From positions 1 to 64,000 of the forward strand of contig JAUNGB010000011.1 of NCBI GenBank assembly GCA_030524715.1: a stretch of 64,000 bases of DNA. The letters are read 5' to 3'. This document shows, piece after piece, positions 29,813 through 58,710 of this stretch. Below the pieces are notes generated by a model. That model worked only from the letters and a program-made list of their open reading frames with translations. It was not told the DNA's origin and did no database searches. Source of the stretch: Eubacteriales bacterium. GTDB taxonomy: Bacteria; Bacillota; Clostridia; Lachnospirales; Lachnospiraceae. Every line of letters starts with the position of its first letter. The first letter of the stretch is position 1. Position numbers and translations under genes: made by a program.

Positions 29813-31204
29813 CTATTCCGCGACAGCCATCAAGGCTATTCCTTCTTTCCCGGGCAGCGCCGGCTCAATTTTTCCTTTTACGCCTGTATATACTACCTTC
29901 CGGGTCATTTCCCAGATGTCGATGACCTCGATCCGATAAGTATGGTCTTCCGGCAGCGTCCATGTGGTCATGCCGCAGCACCGACGTCCGAAATACTCCA
30001 GAAACACCTGATCTCCCACATGCCCGCGGCATACGCTGTCTTTTACCCTCATACTTTCCTGCTGCTCTTTCGGCATTGCCTCCATCAGATTTTTCAAAAT
30101 AGAAAGCCCCTGTTCCATGGTTGTGACTTTGATCTGAATATAACGGAAGGTTCTAAACAGAAACGGAACATACACCTCCGGTTTTTCTTTTGTCCCATAT
30201 CTGGTCACATGATATTGATCCACAGGTCCCTGCAGCCGGCCGCTCCTGTGATCTGTCCTGTCTCCCTTGATCGGCGGCAACGGACGTTTTCCCACAGGCG
30301 TAATCATATCAGGCTGCGGAATTCCATAGCATTCTGAATATAAAATTTCTATTTTTGCATCACGCCCGCCGGATACGCCAAGCATCGGATAACCGCACAT
30401 CTCTTCCCCGGCAGAGAGCTCCACAATCTGAGTCGTATGCGCGGGAATTTCCACCTCCGCCTGACCATGCAGCATTTGATTCCACTGCTCCATCAGCAGT
30501 TCCTTTGTCCCGGCGGATGCGTCTCTGATACATACTGTCTCACAGAACCTGCTCTTTTGATGCTCCATAGGCGGAATGGTTCTGTTCTTCATATGAAACG
30601 GAGCTACAGGCTTTTTCGTCTCGAAAAAAGTATATGGCTTTGCTTCCTCCCAGCCGCTGTCGTCAAAACCGGTCTCCATCCATCTGATACAGCGGTCACA
30701 TTTCTATACGCTCTCTGAACCATGAATGGAAGCCGGATTAAAAGGTTCCTTCCTTAGCTGAATGTGGTCGGCAACATAATATTTCCAACCGCTTTTTCCG
30801 TCCAGTTCTTTATCGCCTGCATCTCCCGTGCAGTCCGAAGTCGTTTCCTCCCGCAGATCCTCCACATAAAGGCAGGGAAACGGACTGTAATATAAACTGT
30901 CGTTTCTCTTTGCGCTGTTTTCCGGATAATATAAGACCTGCACAGCCGCTGTATTTTTGCCGTCCCTGAGAAATCCGGCGATACCTGCTGTGTCAGCGTA
31001 GGTTGCTTCTATTGTTCCCTTCTGGGGACCCTCCTGAACAAACACACCGTTAATATACAGCTTATACCTGCAGTTCGCTGATATCTGGAGCCTGTCTCCT
31101 TTATGAAATTCTTTTCTGAAATATACGATACAGGGGGAGTCTCTCTTCACTCGTTCCCAATCATTTATCCATATCCAATTACTCAATAAAAAATCCGTAT
31201 CCAT
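29813..31204 (-). pseudogene. Chimeric glycosidase pseudogene: GH78 N-terminal domains joined to a DUF5605 tail, with an amber stop
   Basis: The first part (31204-30704) reads like the N-terminal beta-sandwich of the neighbouring GH78 protein (YKLYINGVFVQEGP; GKNTAAVQVLYYP). It ends at TAG (30704-30706), and the same frame resumes at once (KCDRCIRWMETGFDDSGW), so a single base could separate it from an intact reading. The next section runs to FRTFRYIQIKVTTMEQ, where the catalytic barrel should begin. Instead, at about 30085, it jumps to a tail with FLEYFGRRCCGM, YRIEVIDIWEMTRK and LPGKEGIA. That tail is the end of the DUF5605 protein at 57017 (IEVIDVWEMTRKTILTGVHG). The catalytic domain is missing, so it is almost certainly non-functional. 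Confidence 0.75.
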
Positions 31205-31453
31205 TTGTTCTCCCTCTCTGTCTTTTCTAATTCCAAACCCAATCCCTGCATATCTGATATAAAGCGGAAATTCCCATTCCGCGGTAAAGTCATTCTAACA
31301 TTTTGAACTATAGAAAAACATACAGATTTTAAACCTCTTATTTTCATTTCAGAACTTTTGTTTCCCAGAGAATCATTAACTGCCGCTTACATCCGTGCCG
31401 ACTTTGAACAGTCCGCCTTTATCTCCCGGAAATATTTCTGCGTAAACTGAATA
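31205..31453. other. Non-coding spacer with a hairpin and a possible in-frame fossil
   Basis: GCGGAA (31264-31269) and TTCCGC (31277-31282) form a short stem. Immediately after the GH78-like stop (31454) the same frame stays open for 23 more codons (YSVYAEIFPGDKGGLFKVG), which may be a lost C-terminal end or a fossil. I see no promoter I can support. Confidence 0.35.
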
Positions 31454-38885: not shown

Positions 38886-40175
38886 TTACTCTTCCCAGTC
38901 AAGCCCAAGCTGTACTGCCATTTTATAGCAGTCAAGGTCATACTTTTCCGCCGCCTCCTGACCGGTTATCTGGCCATTTGAAACTTCTACGCAGATACTT
39001 TCGCATCCCGCTCCCTTTACAGAGGTTTCATATTCCTGTGCAAGCGCAGTGTCCCCATTATCAAAATATTCCTGCATCTGCTCTACTGCCGCAAACGGAT
39101 CTCCCTTCAATTTATAACCTACAATATTAAAGGGACCTACCGGAGGCTGTGTTTCCGCATAAATGTCCATGCCTTCATCAGAAATATAATATTCCATAAA
39201 GCTTATGATATCTTCCATTTCGGCTTTTGCATCTTTATTCACATAAATTGCATTTGCAGGCCACACCGTCATCCCGTTGGAATCCGCATGGTCGCCCGGA
39301 ACAGGGAAGAAGCCGATATTATCCACAGTTTCCTTGTCGTATAAAGAATAGATATTAGAAAGTGCCTGACTCTGCATGAAATAGTGAGCGCCGTCTCCCT
39401 CTGCAAGCATTGTGCATGCATCATCATATGTAGCCACTGCACAGTCTTCATTGTAATACGGAATTAAATCTTCGTACTTTTCAAAACTTCGAAGTGCGGC
39501 AGGCGTAGTAGCGTATTTTGCTTCCCCGGCTTCAAACTTTGCCGAAAAATCCGGTTCCTCCGCCACCACATTAAAATAGTCTGCCAAAAATACAAGCTGA
39601 CTGGTCCATGTACTTCCAAAGGATCCGATCACTGCAGTCTTTCCCGCATCCTTAAGCGCGTCGCAATTTGCCAGAAACTCATCCCATGTTTTTGGAATTT
39701 CCAGTCCTAATTCCTCATACATTTCTTTGTTGTAAAGAACGCCTCCAACCTGCGAAGAAGACTGCGGAATGCCGTATATTGCACCGTCAACCGTAACAGA
39801 TTCCTTAAAGTCCTTGTCCAGCTTATCAACAAGTTCTGTGTAGGATGAGAGGTCTGCAAAATATTGAGATGGATTCAACTTGGAAAGCAGCGCCCCGGAA
39901 TTATAGAGGATAACATCCGGAGCCTCACCGCTGGCAAGAAGAGACCGAAAAATCGTCTCACCGCTCTCATCTGCGTAAGGCTGAGCTTCAATAGTAACTC
40001 CCAGCTTTTCTTCCGCCGCATCGCAAACCTGATTAAATGCATCCGGCACAAGCGAGCTCGGATATCCAACGGTAATCACCTTTTCCGCATCAGCAGATAC
40101 CAAAACAGTACCTGCAGTATTCATACTTCCGACCATAGCCGCGCATAATATAAAGGACATCATTTTTCTTTTCAT
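38886..40175 (-). CDS. Extracellular sugar-binding protein of the ABC transporter
   Basis: 429 residues. A basic N-terminus (MKRKMM) and hydrophobic core (SFILCAAMVGSMNTAG), with likely signal-peptidase cleavage after VLVSADA. The mature part is a periplasmic-binding-protein fold of the family 1 type (ITVGYPSSLVPDAF; NSGALLSKLNPSQYFADLSS; IPKTWDEFLANCDALKDAGK). It captures a sugar and delivers it to the two permeases. Oddly there is no lipobox Cys at the cleavage site, whereas Gram-positive binding proteins are usually lipoproteins. It might be released, or held by the translocon. First gene of the transporter-YesMN-GH78 cluster. Confidence 0.9.
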   Translation of the reverse strand: MKRKMMSFILCAAMVGSMNTAGTVLVSADAEKVITVGYPSSLVPDAFNQVCDAAEEKLGVTIEAQPYADESGETIFRSLLASGEAPDVILYNSGALLSKLNPSQYFADLSSYTELVDKLDKDFKESVTVDGAIYGIPQSSSQVGGVLYNKEMYEELGLEIPKTWDEFLANCDALKDAGKTAVIGSFGSTWTSQLVFLADYFNVVAEEPDFSAKFEAGEAKYATTPAALRSFEKYEDLIPYYNEDCAVATYDDACTMLAEGDGAHYFMQSQALSNIYSLYDKETVDNIGFFPVPGDHADSNGMTVWPANAIYVNKDAKAEMEDIISFMEYYISDEGMDIYAETQPPVGPFNIVGYKLKGDPFAAVEQMQEYFDNGDTALAQEYETSVKGAGCESICVEVSNGQITGQEAAEKYDLDCYKMAVQLGLDWEE

Positions 40176-40244
40176 CTTTTTTCCTCATCTTTCTTAGAAA
40201 ACAAATTTCGGATTCTCTTTACATCGATGTTTTAAGATGTCCTT

Positions 40245-40250
40245 ATTGTA
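40245..40250 (-). promoter_or_regulatory. Possible -10 of the ABC operon
   Basis: TACAAT on the minus strand, 70 bases before the binding-protein ATG, without a recognisable -35. That would fit a promoter needing an activator such as the YesN-like regulator. Weak on its own. Confidence 0.3.
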
Positions 40251-40358
40251 ACAAAAAGCTTATCATCTCTCTATAGAATATCCGTCAAATCCATATGGAA
40301 AATTCAAGGAATCACATCCGCTTCCGAAAAAATTCTCTCTCACATTTAATCATTGTAA

Positions 40359-40469
40359 TTATTTCTGTATGATGTTTAAAAAAGGAACCGGAGCAGAACG
40401 CCCCGGCCATTCCAGATGAAATTCAAGACCCGCTCCGTCAATATTTCTGACAGGCACCCTATATCTCAT
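40359..40469 (-). pseudogene. C-terminal gene fossil next to the HEPN gene
   Basis: A 36-codon frame whose body reads VPVRNIDGAGLEFHLEWPGR and ends SAPVPFLNIIQK before TAA. The GAGLEFHLEWPG segment looks like the last strands of a glycosidase-associated beta domain (PA14-like). The first codons overlap the end of the shifted HEPN frame (stop 40466-40468), so the join between defence module and fossil is at about 40455-40470. It could be the tail of the gene that began at 42669. Confidence 0.45.
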
Positions 40470-41166
40470 CCTTTTTCAACTGCTATTTTATGTATTGCTA
40501 CCACAATTGCTTCTACTTCTGATGCTCGTTCCTCAACGAACTCTTTTTCTATGTCTGTTTGTTCTGCTGATGCATGATCTCGATCTAATTGGTGGGCAAT
40601 TGCATTTCTCCGTTTGAACAATTCTGAACCACTCCATCTCCATATTTCTTTGATTCATTAATTGTATCTTTTTTAAAAGCTTCATGCATCACATTCTCGT
40701 ATCCAACGCCGATCAAATTCAATTGATCACGCATATTCTCTGATGATAAGAACACATCTCTGCTAAATCTCTCATTCAAGTATCCAAAAAACCATTCTTT
40801 CGATTCAACTGCCGCCATCCCTTCTTCCACTTTTTTCATTGGGATTTTTAAAGATTGGTACTGTTTGCTTTTTTCCCATTCTCCTTTAAACATTTTATAC
40901 AAACAATATTTACTCATTTCATGGAGATAAAAGTCTAAAATACCCTCCAGAAATACAATCTGAGATCGCCATATATTTTTACAATCATCTTCTTTTCCAT
41001 CCTGTTTCAATGAATCTGCAACTTCATATTGATTCTTGATTCTGTCCAGGCTTTGATCAAAATGACCTTTTATATCCGCAAGTTCAAACTGAATAGGCGG
41101 CGCAACCCTATGCGGGTCTCGGTTATTTTCGGCGCGTTCATTTAAATCCAAATTTCGTTCTGCCAT
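40466..41166 (-). pseudogene. HEPN-domain RNase-like protein, frameshifted just before its catalytic motif
   Basis: As read, the frame ends at 40585 (193 residues). The first part has the helical signature IVFLEGILDFYLHEMSKYC of RiboL-PSP-type HEPN proteins but no R-x4-H motif. In the -1 frame, from about 40650, the DNA encodes SELFKRRNAIAHQLDRDHAS and runs on to a stop at 40466. RNAIAH is the HEPN ribonuclease motif. The total, 701 bases, is one short of a multiple of three, and restoring one A in the run near TCAAAG (about 40655) joins the two parts into about 233 residues. It lies 12 bases after the AAA ATPase stop, with GAGGTGCAGG before the ATG, so the pair forms one operon. It is a toxin-like effector that is either inactivated or mis-sequenced. 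Confidence 0.7.
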
Positions 41167-41178
41167 ACCTGCACCTCA

Positions 41179-42426
41179 TTACATTTTTGAAACAATGTTC
41201 GCGAAATCAATATTTAACATAGGTATCGCTCCATATCGTCCAGAAATATAACCTTTGCCAAAATTATCATCTTTTCGAATATTTCTGATTTCTGCCAATG
41301 AGTATAATTCTGTAGAACGGTCTTCTTTTTTCAATTCTGTAAACCATATCTGATCTCTTCTAAATAAATCTAAATTTAAAAGACCTGTTTCGTGCGTCGT
41401 AAAGAATATCTGTGGAAAATTATCAGACTTCAAATCCATAAATAATCGGATCAAGCCCAAAACGAGAGACTCATGCAATCCTGCTTCCAACTCATCACAC
41501 AGAAGTACTTTCCCATTAACTATAATATCTAACAATGGACATAATAAACCAAATAACTTTTTAACGCCCGTAGATTCTTCCTGCATCAAATCAATTTCAA
41601 ATCCATCATATATTACTTTAGCGGTGATTGAATTAACATTTCCCTGCAAAATTATATTTTTAAACTCTGCTGATAAAAACGGCGGCAGCTTATCCGCTTC
41701 CATTTTCTGTTGATCAATTGTCACCTCTATATCTTTCAAGCCCAGTCCTAAATTCTGCATAAATGCTATAACAGCCTGCTTCACGTTATCGTTTGTATTC
41801 ATCTGATATAAGGAATACTGCATCCAATTATCCTGATTATTCGGACCATATATGACTAATTCATCACTAAAAAATTTGTATGCATGTTCTATCTCCATTA
41901 CAGAACTGAAATTTGCAGCACAAGAAAGCAACAATCTATTAGGTTTCAATACATCTTTGCATGTAGCTAATTTACCTCTGAATTTACTTCCTGTTGTAAA
42001 TTTATCACCCTTTCTTTCAAATATTTTTGCCTGGCGTCCATTTGGGAAAAAATACAAATATTCTTCGGCAACAAGCATGTTTCTCAAAGAAAAACCAAAT
42101 ACATATCTTGTGTTTTTAGTCACAAACTGAATTCGATATACACTTTCCTTTTCAAAACCGTCTAATTTATGAGGTACTTGTCGTATTCCTTGTCCTGGCT
42201 GATGATTAATACTATTCATAACCAACATTTTAACAAAACTAATCGCATCGATGAAGTTACTCTTTCCAGATCCATTTGCTCCATAAATCACAGCGGATTT
42301 AAGAACTCTGTGTCCTTCAAATTCTTTTGTTTTCTCCTCGTATGTTGTGTCACTACCGGCCAAGGCTGAAAACAATATTTCTTCTCGAATAGATTTATGG
42401 TTTGTACAAGAAAATTCAAGCAGCAT
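41179..42426 (-). CDS. AAA-family ATPase (OLD/RloA/AbiLi-like), partner of the HEPN protein
   Basis: About 415 residues. N-terminal strand LEFSCTNHKSIREEILFS, then Walker A YGANGSGKSNFIDAI (about residue 47-60), and near the C-terminus VLLCDELEAGLHESLV (Walker B/D-loop type) and FFTTHETGLL (switch His). This is the ABC-like ATPase type of AbiLi, RloA and other abortive-infection ATPases; there is no TOPRIM domain. The start at 42426 is chosen because AAGGAGG lies seven bases before it; longer frames reach 42504. The codon use and DNA are visibly more AT-rich than the flanking glycosidase genes. With the HEPN gene it forms a two-gene candidate antiphage module, probably acquired horizontally. 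Confidence 0.85.
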   Translation of the reverse strand: MLLEFSCTNHKSIREEILFSALAGSDTTYEEKTKEFEGHRVLKSAVIYGANGSGKSNFIDAISFVKMLVMNSINHQPGQGIRQVPHKLDGFEKESVYRIQFVTKNTRYVFGFSLRNMLVAEEYLYFFPNGRQAKIFERKGDKFTTGSKFRGKLATCKDVLKPNRLLLSCAANFSSVMEIEHAYKFFSDELVIYGPNNQDNWMQYSLYQMNTNDNVKQAVIAFMQNLGLGLKDIEVTIDQQKMEADKLPPFLSAEFKNIILQGNVNSITAKVIYDGFEIDLMQEESTGVKKLFGLLCPLLDIIVNGKVLLCDELEAGLHESLVLGLIRLFMDLKSDNFPQIFFTTHETGLLNLDLFRRDQIWFTELKKEDRSTELYSLAEIRNIRKDDNFGKGYISGRYGAIPMLNIDFANIVSKM

Positions 42427-42633
42427 ATTCTTTTCCTCCTTTTTCATAGTCAGATATCCTTTCTCACGATTACAGTAACACATATTTTGCAATTTATCAA
42501 GCATATTTGTATATTTTGCCGCAAATTATGTATTTAAATTGCATTTTATTCCATTTTATAATTTTATTCATAATATGATATGCAACTTATTTGAAGTCTA
42601 TACATGAAATTATATTTGAAACATACTGTTTTT

Positions 42634-42669
42634 TCAAAGGAGACTAATGCCTGCAGCATCCTTCCACAT
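42634..42669 (-). pseudogene. Orphan gene start interrupted by the ATPase-HEPN module
   Basis: Directly after the GH3 stop there is AGGAGGAAGG and ATG, then only MWKDAAGISLL before TGA. A perfect ribosome-binding site on an 11-codon frame, spaced like the next gene of an operon, suggests the start of a lost gene. The MWKDA start resembles MWRNA of the GH78-like protein at 31454. Sequence beyond 42630 becomes AT-rich, marking the edge of the inserted module. Confidence 0.45.
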
Positions 42670-42690
42670 AATCCTTCCTCCTGGATATCT

Positions 42691-45093
42691 CTACTGTACA
42701 TCCGCCTCAGCAAAGAATCCCCTCTCACTTCCTTCTATAACTTCATCCTCCGTGATCCGGAAGCTGTCTGTCAGCCGTATATCTTCAGAAGAGCTTCCTG
42801 CCAGTACTTTAAACTCTCCTTTTTCCACTTTCCAGTTATAATTGCGGTCAAGAAACGCTGTCTGGCTTGCCTGCATGGTAAAACGGACTGTCTTCTTTTC
42901 TCCCGGTGCAAGATTGACGCGCAGAAAACCTGCCAGTTCTTTTACCGGACGTGTCTGGCTGGCAAATACATCGCTGAAATATATCTGTACTACCTCGTCC
43001 CCTGCATAATCTCCGGTGTTTTTCACAGATACTTCCAGTACCAGTTCCTCTTCCGGGCGAATTTCCTTTTTCGCAAGCTTCAGATCTGAATATTCAAAGG
43101 TTGTATACGACAGGCCATGTCCGAAGAAATAGCGTGGCGTATGGGGCATATCCACATAATTTGCAAAACCGATGCTTTCTCCCTGATGCCATGCGGAACC
43201 ATTGGGATGATTATAATAAATGGGAATCTGACCTGCGTTTCTTGCCACAGAGACAGGAAGCTTCCCTCCCGGATTATATTCTCCGGTAAGAACCTTCGTA
43301 ATTGCTTCCGCACCCATTTCGGACGGATTCCATGCTTCCACAATGGCATCCAGATACTTATCCGCGATATCACTGGAGATCGGACGTCCGTTGAAATGAA
43401 TACCGATCATCGGTTTCCCAAGCTCTGCTGCACGTTTGATAAAGGTATCCTGACATACCGGCAGATTGATATCAGTTCCGTCTACACCCTCTCCCATAGA
43501 AGCCACAGAACAGGAGCCGTGTTTGCCGCCTAATGTCATGATCACAACGTCTGCATTTTTCACCGCATCCAAAGCTTCCTCCATATGCGACAGATCGTCA
43601 CCGGCAATTGCATATCCATAGGCATAAGTGATTTCCGCATCCGGAAGCTTTGCACGGAGTTCTTCCAGAAGGCTTGGACATCCCGGCTTCTGCTGCTTTA
43701 AAATCGCATCAAATTCCGCTGTTTCATCTGACTGAATCTGCGTTCCGGGTACAGTAATCATCGCCTTTTCTTCTACTGTCCCGGATTCTATTCCAGCTAT
43801 GGAATTGGCTGTAGCATAGACTGCTTCCATCATACTTAAGTGCGTATAACCGCCAAAAAAGCTTCTTGCATTTTGGGCATGGCAACCGACTACGGCAATT
43901 TTTTTCACATCCCTTTTCAGCGGCAGAACACCGTTATTTTTCATGAGAACTATGGATTCCAAGGCCGCCTGAAGAGATATCTGGCGGTCTTCTTCACATA
44001 GAAATACGCTTCTTAAATCATCCCCGTCCAAAGCAAATGGATGTTCAAAAAGCCCCATACGGAATTTTGTTTCCAGTACACGGCAAACCGCCTGATCCAG
44101 AACTGCAATGTCAGCTTTCCCTGTGCGGAACCAGTCCTCCAGTTCTTTATTAAATCCTGTACAGCACTGCATTTCCACATCCATTCCTGCCTCCATACAG
44201 AACAGCCCCGCCTGCGCGGTGCTTTCTCCTACCTTCTGGACATTATGGACATTTCCTACGGCTCCATAATCCGAGATACAGATTCCGTCAAACCCCATCT
44301 CGCCGCGAAGCAGATCTGTCAGAATCCTTTTTGATGCAGAAACCGGTTCCCCGTTAATAGAACAGTAACATGGCATAACGCCTCTCATATTTTCTTTAGT
44401 TATCGCCGCCTGGAAAGGTTTTCCGTATACTTCATCCAGAAGCCGATCTCCCATATCGCAGTTTGCGCCATGGATGCCGCCCTGAGAATTATGGAATCCC
44501 AGAAAATGCTTGGCGCAGGCTTCTGCCTTCCTTCCCGCCGTTGTTCCGCCCTGGATTCCCCTGACATACGCAGAACCAAGAGACGCTGCCAGCGTGGGAT
44601 CTTCCCCATAAGTTTCTCCCTGACGGCCCATCCTGGAATCACGGGAGATATCCAAAACCGGAGCCAGTACCTGCGTGATCCCGCAGGCGAGTTCCTGGCG
44701 GCTTACAATCTGTCCGATCTTTTCTTCCAGTTCCGGATTCCATGCGGATCCACGGCCGATTCCGGACGGAAAGCTCATGGAATCCTGAATGAAAGCGCCG
44801 CATAAGCCCTCCATATGGAAGATTGCCGGGATCTGATGCTCACTGTTTTCCATGACCATTTTCTGTATTTTCCGCTGCCATGCAGCCGCTTCTTCCAAAG
44901 ATTTTATTTCACGTACCATCAGGGTACTGACCTGTCCGATCCCGTGCTCTGCATCCTTTTCCAGTTGTTCCCGGTTATCTCCCCATGGAAACAGACAGTT
45001 TACCTGCGCCATTTTTTCCTCGAGGCTTAACCTCGCTGATAAATCCTCTGCCCGTTCTTTCGGAGAAAGAGAAATATCCAAATATCGTTCCAT
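42691..45093 (-). CDS. GH3 beta-glucosidase/beta-xylosidase-type enzyme
   Basis: About 800 residues: GH3 N-domain, C-domain and Fn3. Landmarks: LAPVLDISRDSRMGRQGETY, KHFLGFHNSQGGIHGANCD, nucleophile Asp in FDGICISDYGAVG (about residue 285), C-domain KRDVKKIAVVGCHAQNAR and Fn3 VKNTGDYAGDEVVQIYF. It hydrolyses non-reducing beta-linked glucose, xylose or related sugars; cytoplasmic. The start at 45093 (MERYLD) is chosen, with AAAGGAG ten bases upstream; a TTG two codons earlier is less likely. It follows the GH43 gene by 23 bases and was probably followed by another gene, now lost (42669). A fossil copy of its LAPVLDISRDSRMGRQ segment exists at 55128. Confidence 0.92.
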   Translation of the reverse strand: MERYLDISLSPKERAEDLSARLSLEEKMAQVNCLFPWGDNREQLEKDAEHGIGQVSTLMVREIKSLEEAAAWQRKIQKMVMENSEHQIPAIFHMEGLCGAFIQDSMSFPSGIGRGSAWNPELEEKIGQIVSRQELACGITQVLAPVLDISRDSRMGRQGETYGEDPTLAASLGSAYVRGIQGGTTAGRKAEACAKHFLGFHNSQGGIHGANCDMGDRLLDEVYGKPFQAAITKENMRGVMPCYCSINGEPVSASKRILTDLLRGEMGFDGICISDYGAVGNVHNVQKVGESTAQAGLFCMEAGMDVEMQCCTGFNKELEDWFRTGKADIAVLDQAVCRVLETKFRMGLFEHPFALDGDDLRSVFLCEEDRQISLQAALESIVLMKNNGVLPLKRDVKKIAVVGCHAQNARSFFGGYTHLSMMEAVYATANSIAGIESGTVEEKAMITVPGTQIQSDETAEFDAILKQQKPGCPSLLEELRAKLPDAEITYAYGYAIAGDDLSHMEEALDAVKNADVVIMTLGGKHGSCSVASMGEGVDGTDINLPVCQDTFIKRAAELGKPMIGIHFNGRPISSDIADKYLDAIVEAWNPSEMGAEAITKVLTGEYNPGGKLPVSVARNAGQIPIYYNHPNGSAWHQGESIGFANYVDMPHTPRYFFGHGLSYTTFEYSDLKLAKKEIRPEEELVLEVSVKNTGDYAGDEVVQIYFSDVFASQTRPVKELAGFLRVNLAPGEKKTVRFTMQASQTAFLDRNYNWKVEKGEFKVLAGSSSEDIRLTDSFRITEDEVIEGSERGFFAEADVQ

Positions 45094-57016: not shown

Positions 57017-58549
57017 TTACTGTTTTACAGCCAAAACTGCAATTCCTTCCTTACCAGGAAGAGTAAATTCCACTTTTCCATGTACACCGGTAAGGATGGT
57101 TTTCCTCGTCATTTCCCACACATCGATCACTTCAATACGGTATTCGCCTGTCTCAGGCAGTTCCAGTTCGCCGACAGCCGTACAATGTCTTCCATAGTAG
57201 GAAAGGTATGCTTCCTCGCCGCAATGACCTGTATAAATTCTTGTATCGCTTGTTATATTATCTATGACACGGATAACCTCTTCTGTCGGCAGCTTGAGCA
57301 GCGCCCGGGTAAAGTCGGTCTGCTGCTCCTGGTGAAGTCCCTGACGCATCTCCTCAATCATTTCTGCTGAAACAAATCTTGCATAAACCGGCTCCAATGC
57401 TCCTGGAAGCCCTTTAATGATTTCCTTTAAAAATCGGATTCTTTCCGGTGATTTTCCTGCAAGCTTTCCGCCTTTTCCCCACCAGAGGGTATCCGTATCA
57501 TTCATAAATGTTTCTCCGTGCGTTCCGTATCCGCCAAGGACACAGCAGATCCAGAAGCGGTGAACCAGCTCAAAACCTGACAGGTTTCCCCAATGACAGG
57601 AAATATTCCCCTCATACCCGAATTCATCCATAAGCACTGGTTTCCGGTATCGTTTCATATAAGTATCAACCGCTGTCACATCCCCCTGAATAGAGCAATG
57701 AGTGATATTTTCCTTTGAGAAATCATAATTTTTCAGCATATGGTGACAACTAAGCATATGTCCATACACATCTTTTTCACTGATAAAATGATCGATCCGA
57801 TTCCAGTCTTCTTCCTGAAATGCATTCATACAGTCGTATTCATTTGCCAGACTCCACCACACGTTTGGATAAGCCGCAAATCTTGCGACCAGATAATTCA
57901 GATAGGGAAGATACTCATCTTTTGTCATCCTTGAAAACCCCCAGCAATCATAAGGATGGAACAGGATCAGGTCAACCTGTACCTGATGATCTCCGAGTAT
58001 CTGAAGCATCTGTTCAAAGGTATCCCAAAATGCAAAGCAGGGACGGTGAAAATCAAATCCTCCGTCTGCTTTTTTCTCAAATGCAAACAATTCCGGTTCA
58101 TTTTCATTAAAAATATAATGTTTCGGGAATACGCAGGTACGAACCTTATCAAAGGGTGATTCCAAAATGGTTTCTATAGTCTGGGCAACCAGCTCTTTTG
58201 GCTGATGCATCATGGCATAGACCGTTGTTCCAAATGGGCGGCAGCTTGTTCCATCTTCGTACATCAATGCTGTTCCCGATGGTTTAACAAGGCCATTATG
58301 GATCCCATCCTCACAGGAAATACATTCTTCTTTGCCCTCTGCCTGAAATAAGCCTGTAATCTTCCACTGTACCATTCCTGTCTTTTGAGGGAGATAACGG
58401 ATAACATATCTGCCGTTTCCCGCATAAAAGCCTGAGACTTCTTTTTGATCTCCCTGGCAGGTAAATACTGCCCGAAGATCAATTTCTGACCAGGATCCCT
58501 CCGGTTCCTTCCCCTGAAAAGATAATTCAAATTTCTGATACTGCAGCAT
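57017..58549 (-). CDS. DUF5060/DUF4038/DUF5605 glycosidase (apiosidase-like)
   Basis: 510 residues. N-terminal DUF5060 beta domain (FELSFQGKEPEGSWSEIDLR), then an apiosidase-like TIM barrel (about 95-410) with acid/base Glu in VWWSLANEYDCM (about residue 240) and nucleophile Glu in PVLMDEFGYEG (about 300), and a C-terminal DUF5605 beta domain (YRIEVIDVWEMTRK; LPGKEGIAVLAV). The family includes GH140-type apiosidases and uncharacterised relatives. The enzyme is probably active on a plant side-chain sugar. AGGAGGATA precedes the ATG. The tail of a close relative is fused into the chimeric pseudogene at 29813. Confidence 0.85.
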   Translation of the reverse strand: MLQYQKFELSFQGKEPEGSWSEIDLRAVFTCQGDQKEVSGFYAGNGRYVIRYLPQKTGMVQWKITGLFQAEGKEECISCEDGIHNGLVKPSGTALMYEDGTSCRPFGTTVYAMMHQPKELVAQTIETILESPFDKVRTCVFPKHYIFNENEPELFAFEKKADGGFDFHRPCFAFWDTFEQMLQILGDHQVQVDLILFHPYDCWGFSRMTKDEYLPYLNYLVARFAAYPNVWWSLANEYDCMNAFQEEDWNRIDHFISEKDVYGHMLSCHHMLKNYDFSKENITHCSIQGDVTAVDTYMKRYRKPVLMDEFGYEGNISCHWGNLSGFELVHRFWICCVLGGYGTHGETFMNDTDTLWWGKGGKLAGKSPERIRFLKEIIKGLPGALEPVYARFVSAEMIEEMRQGLHQEQQTDFTRALLKLPTEEVIRVIDNITSDTRIYTGHCGEEAYLSYYGRHCTAVGELELPETGEYRIEVIDVWEMTRKTILTGVHGKVEFTLPGKEGIAVLAVKQ

Positions 58550-58710
58550 ATTATATCCTCCTGATTATTTACTTTTTCTATGCACTATAAAATCTCTCCG
58601 CACTGCATTTATCCAAACAGTACCGGACCAAATAAACCTGCTGGCTCCACCGCTCGCTCACATGAATGAGTATTTACAAGCACCTCCACGGATCCATAAC
58701 ATTCCCCCAT
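58550..58710. other. Spacer between GH3 and DUF5605 genes
   Basis: About 160 bases without a recognisable gene, terminator or fossil. Confidence 0.4.

What the first reader, a model, noticed from the sequence alone, without database searches (positions are those of the whole stretch)
40466..42426. HEPN + AAA ATPase candidate defence module whose RNase motif is hidden in another frame
The 193-residue frame after the ATPase has a HEPN-like helical signature but no catalytic motif. The -1 frame just past it encodes FKRRNAIAHQLDRDH and stays open to 40466. The combined length is one base short of a multiple of three. So a HEPN ribonuclease partner of an AbiLi/RloA-like ATPase is present but frameshifted. 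This may be a silenced toxin, a phase-variable switch at an A-run, or an indel error. The pair lies alone in a sugar locus with AT-richer DNA, as expected for a transferred antiphage system. I cannot match it to a named system.
Basis: partly seen in the sequence, partly recalled or inferred. Interest (0 to 1): 0.75.

Follow-up and report, generated by a model that had tools for sequence, protein, structure and literature searches.

The report
Anti-phage nuclease pair, nuclease broken
This is a two-gene module that probably defends bacteria against viruses, made of an ATP-using guard protein and an RNA-cutting toxin; here, as in several relatives, the toxin gene looks recently broken while the guard gene stays whole.

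Summary
The 193-codon frame 40585-41166(-) is a HEPN protein cut short by a one-frame shift; the rest of the domain, with RRNAIAH, lies in the -1 frame at 40466-40654. A natural homologue (L007, 232 aa) spans both pieces in one frame, and 11 of 11 intact homologues match Pfam HEPN_RiboL-PSP. The partner is an AbiLi-type ATPase, directly upstream in 16 of 17 HEPN relatives examined. Three other AbiLi-type ATPases in this genome have the usual RloB/AbiLii partner, so this is an effector-swapped AbiL-like module. An AAA-HEPN pair was already predicted in print (NetFlax 2023). New here: the HEPN gene is broken in 5 of 16 pairs, by different lesions; the ATPase is open in 16 of 16. Tests of this contrast give p=0.006 to 0.10. 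No A-run or slippery site supports phase variation or programmed frameshifting. Best reading: an abortive-infection RNase and its ATPase guard, with a recently dead toxin here.

The parts
42609..42637 (-). promoter-like site upstream of the ATPase gene (TTGAAA-17-TATAAT, 11 of 12)
   Evidence: best of 14 sites found where shuffles give 11.1 on average, so weak evidence
41179..42426 (-). AbiLi-type ABC/AAA_21 ATPase gene, likely start ATG at 42426 (MLLEF...), 415 aa; the listed ORF extends to 42504
   Evidence: PADLOC AbiLi E 1.8e-81, Pfam AAA_21 E 3.1e-23, open frame and conserved motifs
42259..42282 (-). GANGSGKS, the Walker A motif of the ATPase (motif name recalled)
   Evidence: G49, N51, G54, K55 invariant in 19 aligned ATPases
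41491..41496 (-). D311-E312, the Walker B acidic pair of the ATPase (motif name recalled)
   Evidence: invariant in 19 aligned ATPases
40585..41166 (-). HEPN toxin gene, first part: 193-codon frame, homologous to residues 1-about 180 of the intact protein, then about a dozen out-of-frame codons and a stop
   Evidence: 60% identity to L007 over residues 3-183, E 7.1e-67
40585..40657 (-). interval in which the reading frame is lost; no homopolymer of 4 or more, no XXXYYYZ heptamer
   Evidence: stops bounding the two frames, motif scan
40466..40654 (-). HEPN toxin gene, remainder in the -1 frame (62 codons and stop)
   Evidence: Pfam HEPN_RiboL-PSP E 5.7e-5, below gathering score; 58% identity to L007 residues 181-232, E 1.2e-10
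40592..40612 (-). RRNAIAH, the HEPN Rx4H catalytic motif, out of frame with the start codon
   Evidence: R185, R186, N187 and H191 invariant in 11 intact homologues; motif role from PMC3710099 passages
40386..40408 (-). terminator-like stem-loop with T-run after the HEPN gene
   Evidence: 2 found in the region, shuffles 0.8 on average

Best explanation
The locus is a horizontally moved two-gene abortive-infection or toxin-antitoxin module. An AbiLi/AriA-like ATPase (sensor and inhibitor) is encoded just ahead of a HEPN ribonuclease (effector), with its own promoter-like and terminator-like sites. In the working form the ATPase is expected to hold the nuclease inactive until a phage cue releases or activates it. 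The HEPN protein would then cut host RNA, possibly tRNA, and stop growth. In this genome the nuclease gene has a recent one-frame shift just before its catalytic motif, so only an inactive N-terminal fragment is expected, while the ATPase gene is still open. Shown by computation: the homology, the conserved gene pair, the break, and different breaks in relatives. Inferred: inhibition by the ATPase, phage triggering, RNA target, lack of activity here.
For: AbiLi assignment. HEPN_RiboL-PSP at E up to 0.01 in 11 of 11 intact homologues, with invariant RRN and H. ATPase directly upstream of HEPN on the same strand in 16 of 17 HEPN relatives whose neighbours I examined (the 17th, L025, has a ParA-like ATPase); spacing -11 to +19 nt in the 14 pairs measured. 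ATPase open in 16 of 16, with the invariant motif residues. HEPN broken in 5 of 16 by different lesions: window; L020 in-frame TAA; L023 internal deletion with frame loss plus TAG; L024 early frame loss plus deletion of the motif region; L048 early frame loss. The broken state needs 5 changes on the ATPase tree, of which well-supported branches force 3. dN/dS in pairs with finite dS: ATPase 0.05-0.11, HEPN pieces 0.04-0.21 with two higher values, so the breaks look recent; dS is often above 1, so these are rough. Mobility: tree in conflict with host families (L023 of f1 beside L046 of f8; nearest row to the window is L045 of f11), GC 0.358. ATPases of this kind neutralise other nuclease toxins in assays (PMC10440598, passages); AriA sequesters AriB in PARIS (PMC12409363, passages).
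Against: No assay, no structure, no reads. No match on plasmids, phages or viral contigs, and the three nearest neighbours scanned are sugar genes, so the defence role rests on homology. The HEPN profile finds no credible solved relative (0 with A2, six with E 0.96-1.3 with A3). The -1 piece is below Pfam's gathering score. The excess of HEPN lesions is modest: Fisher p 0.043 with the window and 0.10 without it, and the window was chosen because it was broken. Recent lesions do not show that the ATPase is kept without its toxin.
Confidence: 0.75

Rival explanations
1. The frameshift is an assembly or sequencing error and the gene is intact in the cell.
For: Draft assembly of 210 contigs with 5.02% contamination; no reads available. 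A second gene in the same window has an in-frame stop (29816-31294).
Against: No homopolymer of four or more in the interval. By eye, from the list of frames of 100 codons or more, most of the window is covered by long frames (no systematic count of split genes was made). Four other genomes show HEPN lesions, two of them with large deletions, and random errors should hit the longer ATPase more often (0 of 16 ATPases broken; p=0.016 leaving the window out).
Confidence: 0.15
2. The break is regulated: phase variation by repeat slippage or programmed ribosomal frameshifting joins the two frames in some cells.
For: Both pieces remain well conserved (58-60% identity to L007), as would be expected if both are still translated together.
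Against: No homopolymer of four or more and no XXXYYYZ heptamer in the interval; 11 of 11 intact homologues use a single frame; the other four broken copies are broken elsewhere and differently. A recent break explains the conservation.
Confidence: 0.05
3. The short 193-aa protein is functional, for example as a non-catalytic HEPN partner of the ATPase.
For: The N-terminal part is well conserved and keeps its place beside the ATPase gene.
Against: None of the 11 intact homologues ends there; the last dozen residues are out of frame with L007; other broken copies lose different parts.
Confidence: 0.04

Closest known systems
NetFlax AAA hub D29 with HEPN node M61 (PNAS 2023, PMC10440598; passages seen)
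   Same: AAA ATPase of the AriA/PtuA/GajA kind, also linked there to AbiLi, paired with a HEPN nuclease; predicted toxin-antitoxin logic
   Different: In the passages seen only the pairing is mentioned; whether M61 is this HEPN family could not be checked (supplements not readable). The passages seen do not mention recurrent loss of the toxin.
AbiL (AbiLi + AbiLii/RloB)
   Same: ATPase is AbiLi-type (E 1.8e-81); two genes, ATPase first; three such systems lie elsewhere in the same genome
   Different: Effector is a HEPN protein, not the RloB protein
PARIS (AriA + AriB)
   Same: Related ATPase (AriA model E 1e-28) paired with a nuclease effector; likely inhibit-then-release logic
   Different: Weaker match than AbiLi; effector HEPN instead of Toprim
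RiboL-PSP-HEPN family (PF18735; Anantharaman 2013, PMC3710099, passages seen)
   Same: HEPN domain with conserved Rx4-6H; noted there as distantly related to AbiF and AbiD
   Different: The table row seen lists fusion to L-PSP and an operon with ParB, not pairing with an AbiLi ATPase. L025 in this study has a ParA-like neighbour.

Membership tests
AbiL system | AbiLi ATPase | tested here: met
   PADLOC AbiLi E 1.8e-81; 19 of 19 aligned ATPases match (16 HEPN-paired, 3 RloB-paired)
AbiL system | AbiLii/RloB partner in the operon | tested here: not met
   Partner matches HEPN_RiboL-PSP in 11 of 11 intact homologues and no AbiLii model; the three control loci L002-L004 match RloB and AbiLii
PARIS | AriA ATPase with AriB Toprim nuclease | tested here: not met
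   AriA model matches only second to AbiLi; no Toprim match for the partner in Pfam or PADLOC
HEPN superfamily, RiboL-PSP family | profile match above the curated cut-off | tested here: met
   Met by the homologue L007: 30.9 against 28.4 bits. The other 10 intact homologues match at E up to 0.01, their bit scores not shown. Not met by the window's own pieces: C-terminal piece 23.5 bits, 193-aa piece no match
HEPN superfamily, RiboL-PSP family | Rx4-6H catalytic motif in the translated protein | tested here: not met
   Present in 11 of 11 intact homologues but out of frame in the window
HEPN superfamily, RiboL-PSP family | HEPN helical fold | not testable with these tools
   Structure prediction switched off; no credible solved relative by sequence
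Toxin-antitoxin / abortive infection | toxicity of the nuclease and neutralisation by the ATPase | not testable with these tools
   needs expression assays
HEPN/MNT toxin-antitoxin | MNT nucleotidyltransferase antitoxin | tested here: not met
   partner is an AAA_21/AbiLi ATPase

The most novel reading that the evidence does not exclude
In this family the HEPN nuclease is lost again and again while the ATPase is kept for its own benefit, for instance as a stand-alone antidote against related mobile modules or as a sensor that serves the other AbiL systems of the same cell. The module would then routinely turn from a suicide switch into a guard without a weapon.
Probability: 0.15. Interest if true: 0.6.

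Novelty: new member of a known kind. Interest (0 to 1): 0.42.

Why it matters
It defines a compact AbiLi-HEPN family, found here in the window's family, its order and its class, with 11 natural intact copies that can be tested directly. It also gives a natural series of broken effectors beside intact ATPases, which makes the question of what an ATPase guard does after losing its toxin testable. If the excess of toxin breaks holds in a larger sample, it reflects the cost of carrying such systems. For genome annotation it is a warning that a defence call made on the ATPase alone may describe a dead system.

Tried and rejected
Programmed frameshift: scanned the 193-codon ORF for XXXYYYZ heptamers in the zero-frame register; three found, none in the interval. 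Phase variation: no homopolymer of four or more in the interval; direct repeats of 14 nt or more in 40100-42800 are two imperfect two-copy families, none in the interval. Viral, phage and plasmid homologues: none found. Solved structures for the HEPN profile: none, then six at E 0.96-1.3, taken as chance. Cas12a/Cpf1, Csx1, PDC-S02, GajA and similar model matches to the HEPN proteins are weak (best 2.3e-4) and taken as chance. One of 11 members each also matches HEPN_Swt1, NTase_sub_bind and HI0074; I did not follow these up.

Rows dropped before the count of 16: L008 (a short shared peptide in an otherwise unrelated Thauera frame), L025/G429 (HEPN beside a ParA-like ATPase), L034/G473 (weak match inside a 973-aa frame, not examined). 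Control: RloB partner in the same family, 10 matches in 8 of 329 genomes; 9 have an open frame by the table, which I did not inspect one by one, and 1 is truncated (L058), with no ATPase frame seen upstream by eye. HEPN 5 of 9 (8 pairs of family f1 plus L007) against RloB 1 of 10 gives p=0.057, and 0.12 without the window; with f1 alone 0.043 and 0.10. Not decisive. One search used a denominator of 10 in the HEPN-against-RloB and family tests; one search corrects this. An early note of mine carries the same wrong number; the right one is 8 plus L007.

Literature, all seen as passages only: HEPN 2013, PARIS tRNase paper, NetFlax, BREX 2026, DefensePredictor. Searches for RiboL-PSP found no paper, because the 2013 paper writes it with a space. 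The listed rows of searches showed me no paper on recurrent HEPN loss beside an AbiLi ATPase; these list only the best rows of open-access papers, so they are no proof of absence. Krishnan 2020 is not held.

Full report
What is in the sequence. On the minus strand, an ATPase ORF (listed 41179-42504, likely start ATG at 42426) is followed after 12 nt by a 193-codon ORF, 40585-41166. In the -1 frame the sequence is open from 40654 to 40466 and encodes FKRRNAIAHQLDRDH. The pair sits in the most AT-rich part of the window (GC 0.358 in the two 2-kb windows from 40001 to 43000, 0.400 or more in all others), between a GH3 glycosidase and an ABC transporter's solute-binding protein and permease. A promoter-like site precedes it and a terminator-like stem-loop follows it.

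What the proteins are. The ATPase matches PADLOC AbiLi at E 1.8e-81, with AriA next at 1e-28, and Pfam AAA_21. The 193-aa frame alone matches no HEPN model. The -1 piece matches HEPN_RiboL-PSP at E 5.7e-5, below the curated score. The evidence that they are one gene comes from a relative: L007, from an uncultured Lachnospiraceae genome, has a single 232-aa frame that covers both pieces (58-60% identity) and itself passes the Pfam cut-off. All 11 intact homologues match HEPN_RiboL-PSP at E up to 0.01 and all keep RRN and H of the Rx4H motif. That this motif is the catalytic centre of HEPN RNases is taken from PMC3710099 (passages).

How conserved the pair is. I searched 64 genomes of the genus with the 193-aa frame (only the own genome matched), 397 of the family with the L007 protein (8 matched, 7 of them this pair), 392 of the order (9 matched, 5 new pairs), 4, 29 and 3 genomes of three genera (one new pair) and 371 of the class (3 matched, 2 new, distant pairs at about 25% identity). 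The samples overlap in part. With L007 this gives 16 pairs. Of 17 HEPN relatives whose neighbours I examined, 16 have the AbiLi-type ATPase directly upstream on the same strand; the 17th, L025, has a ParA-like ATPase. A search with the L007 ATPase at E up to 1e-80 in 394 family genomes found 6, all already known HEPN-paired loci. That search scored at most 4 candidates per genome, and the ATPase of G342 (L019) was not among its hits, which I did not follow up, so it does not rule out orphan ATPases. By contrast, three other AbiLi-type ATPases of the window's own genome are followed by RloB/AbiLii proteins. In the ATPase tree these three form one group (85/78) apart from the 14 closer HEPN-paired ones (96/93); the tool warns that long branches meet in the RloB group. 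So this looks like a distinct branch of AbiLi-like modules with a HEPN effector.

The break is one of several. In 5 of 16 pairs the HEPN gene is broken, each time differently: the window (frame lost just before the motif), L020 (in-frame TAA), L023 (internal deletion with frame loss, plus a TAG), L024 (early frame loss, plus a deletion that removes the motif region), L048 (early frame loss). On the ATPase tree the broken state needs five changes, of which well-supported branches force three. All five are in the window's family (5 of 8 pairs there; 5 of 9 with L007), none among the 5 order-level and 2 class-level pairs (5 of 9 against 0 of 7, p=0.034). All 16 ATPase genes are open and keep the invariant motif residues (motif names recalled). 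If lesions fell by length, five of five in the HEPN gene has p=0.006, and four of four without the window, which was chosen for being broken, p=0.016; a plain Fisher test gives 0.043 and 0.10. The RloB control points the same way but is not decisive (1 of 10 broken; p=0.057, and 0.12 without the window). Pairwise dN/dS, where dS is finite, is 0.05-0.11 for the ATPase and 0.04-0.21 for HEPN pieces, with two higher values (0.31 for L024 against L043, 0.57 for the 62-codon window piece against L045); dS is often above 1 and some pairs are saturated, so these are rough. For two broken copies, L020 against L048, the HEPN values are 0.07 and 0.09. The breaks are therefore recent, and long-term upkeep of the ATPase without its toxin is not shown.

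Against phase variation and programmed frameshifting. The shift must lie between the stops at 40657 and 40585. That interval has no homopolymer of four or more and no XXXYYYZ heptamer. The six-A run near 40670 lies upstream of -1-frame stops and cannot serve. Intact homologues use one frame. An assembly error at this one locus cannot be excluded without reads; a further broken gene in the window (29816-31294) fits either real decay or errors. The large deletions in L023 and L024 are not simple base-call errors.

How it most likely works. In PARIS, the AriA ATPase complex holds AriB, which cuts tRNA when a phage trigger arrives, and AriB may be activated rather than simply released (PMC12409363, passages). 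In NetFlax, AAA ATPases of hub D29 neutralise Toprim and AarT toxins in toxicity assays, and a HEPN node (M61) is linked to the AAA ATPase zone (PMC10440598, passages). By analogy the AbiLi-type ATPase here would sense infection and restrain the HEPN RNase, which on release stops growth by cutting RNA. All of this is inference for the present family. In the window genome the effector should be dead. Signs of mobility are the low GC and a tree that conflicts with host families; no plasmid, phage or viral copy was found.

Novelty. The pairing as such is already predicted in print; this study adds a defined family, its relation to AbiL, and the observation of repeated, recent toxin breaks. It is a new member of a known kind, with a testable pattern attached.

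Noticed in passing
window 29816-31294 (-): Two ORFs in one frame separated by a single TAG at 30704-30706; the C-terminal part resembles the end of the 515-aa ORF 57020-58564 (46% over 106 aa). A second apparently broken gene in the same sugar-use region.
   Followed up: partly
L002, L003, L004 (own genome, contigs C75, C121, C6): Three further AbiLi-type ATPases, each followed by a RloB/AbiLii protein, so the same cell carries three canonical AbiL-like systems.
   Followed up: yes
L025:4318-5962: A ParA-like ATPase gene overlapping a 201-aa HEPN_RiboL-PSP gene (RRNKIAHESDW): a different ATPase partner for the same HEPN family.
   Followed up: partly
L049 and L050: Distant AAA-HEPN pairs (about 25% identity) in another family of the class, each within about 2 kb of a gene that looks by eye like secA, which suggests a shared chromosomal site.
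   Followed up: no
L058: A truncated RloB gene with no ATPase frame seen upstream by eye, beside genes that look like surface-sugar genes: decay of the whole module, unlike the HEPN loci.
   Followed up: partly
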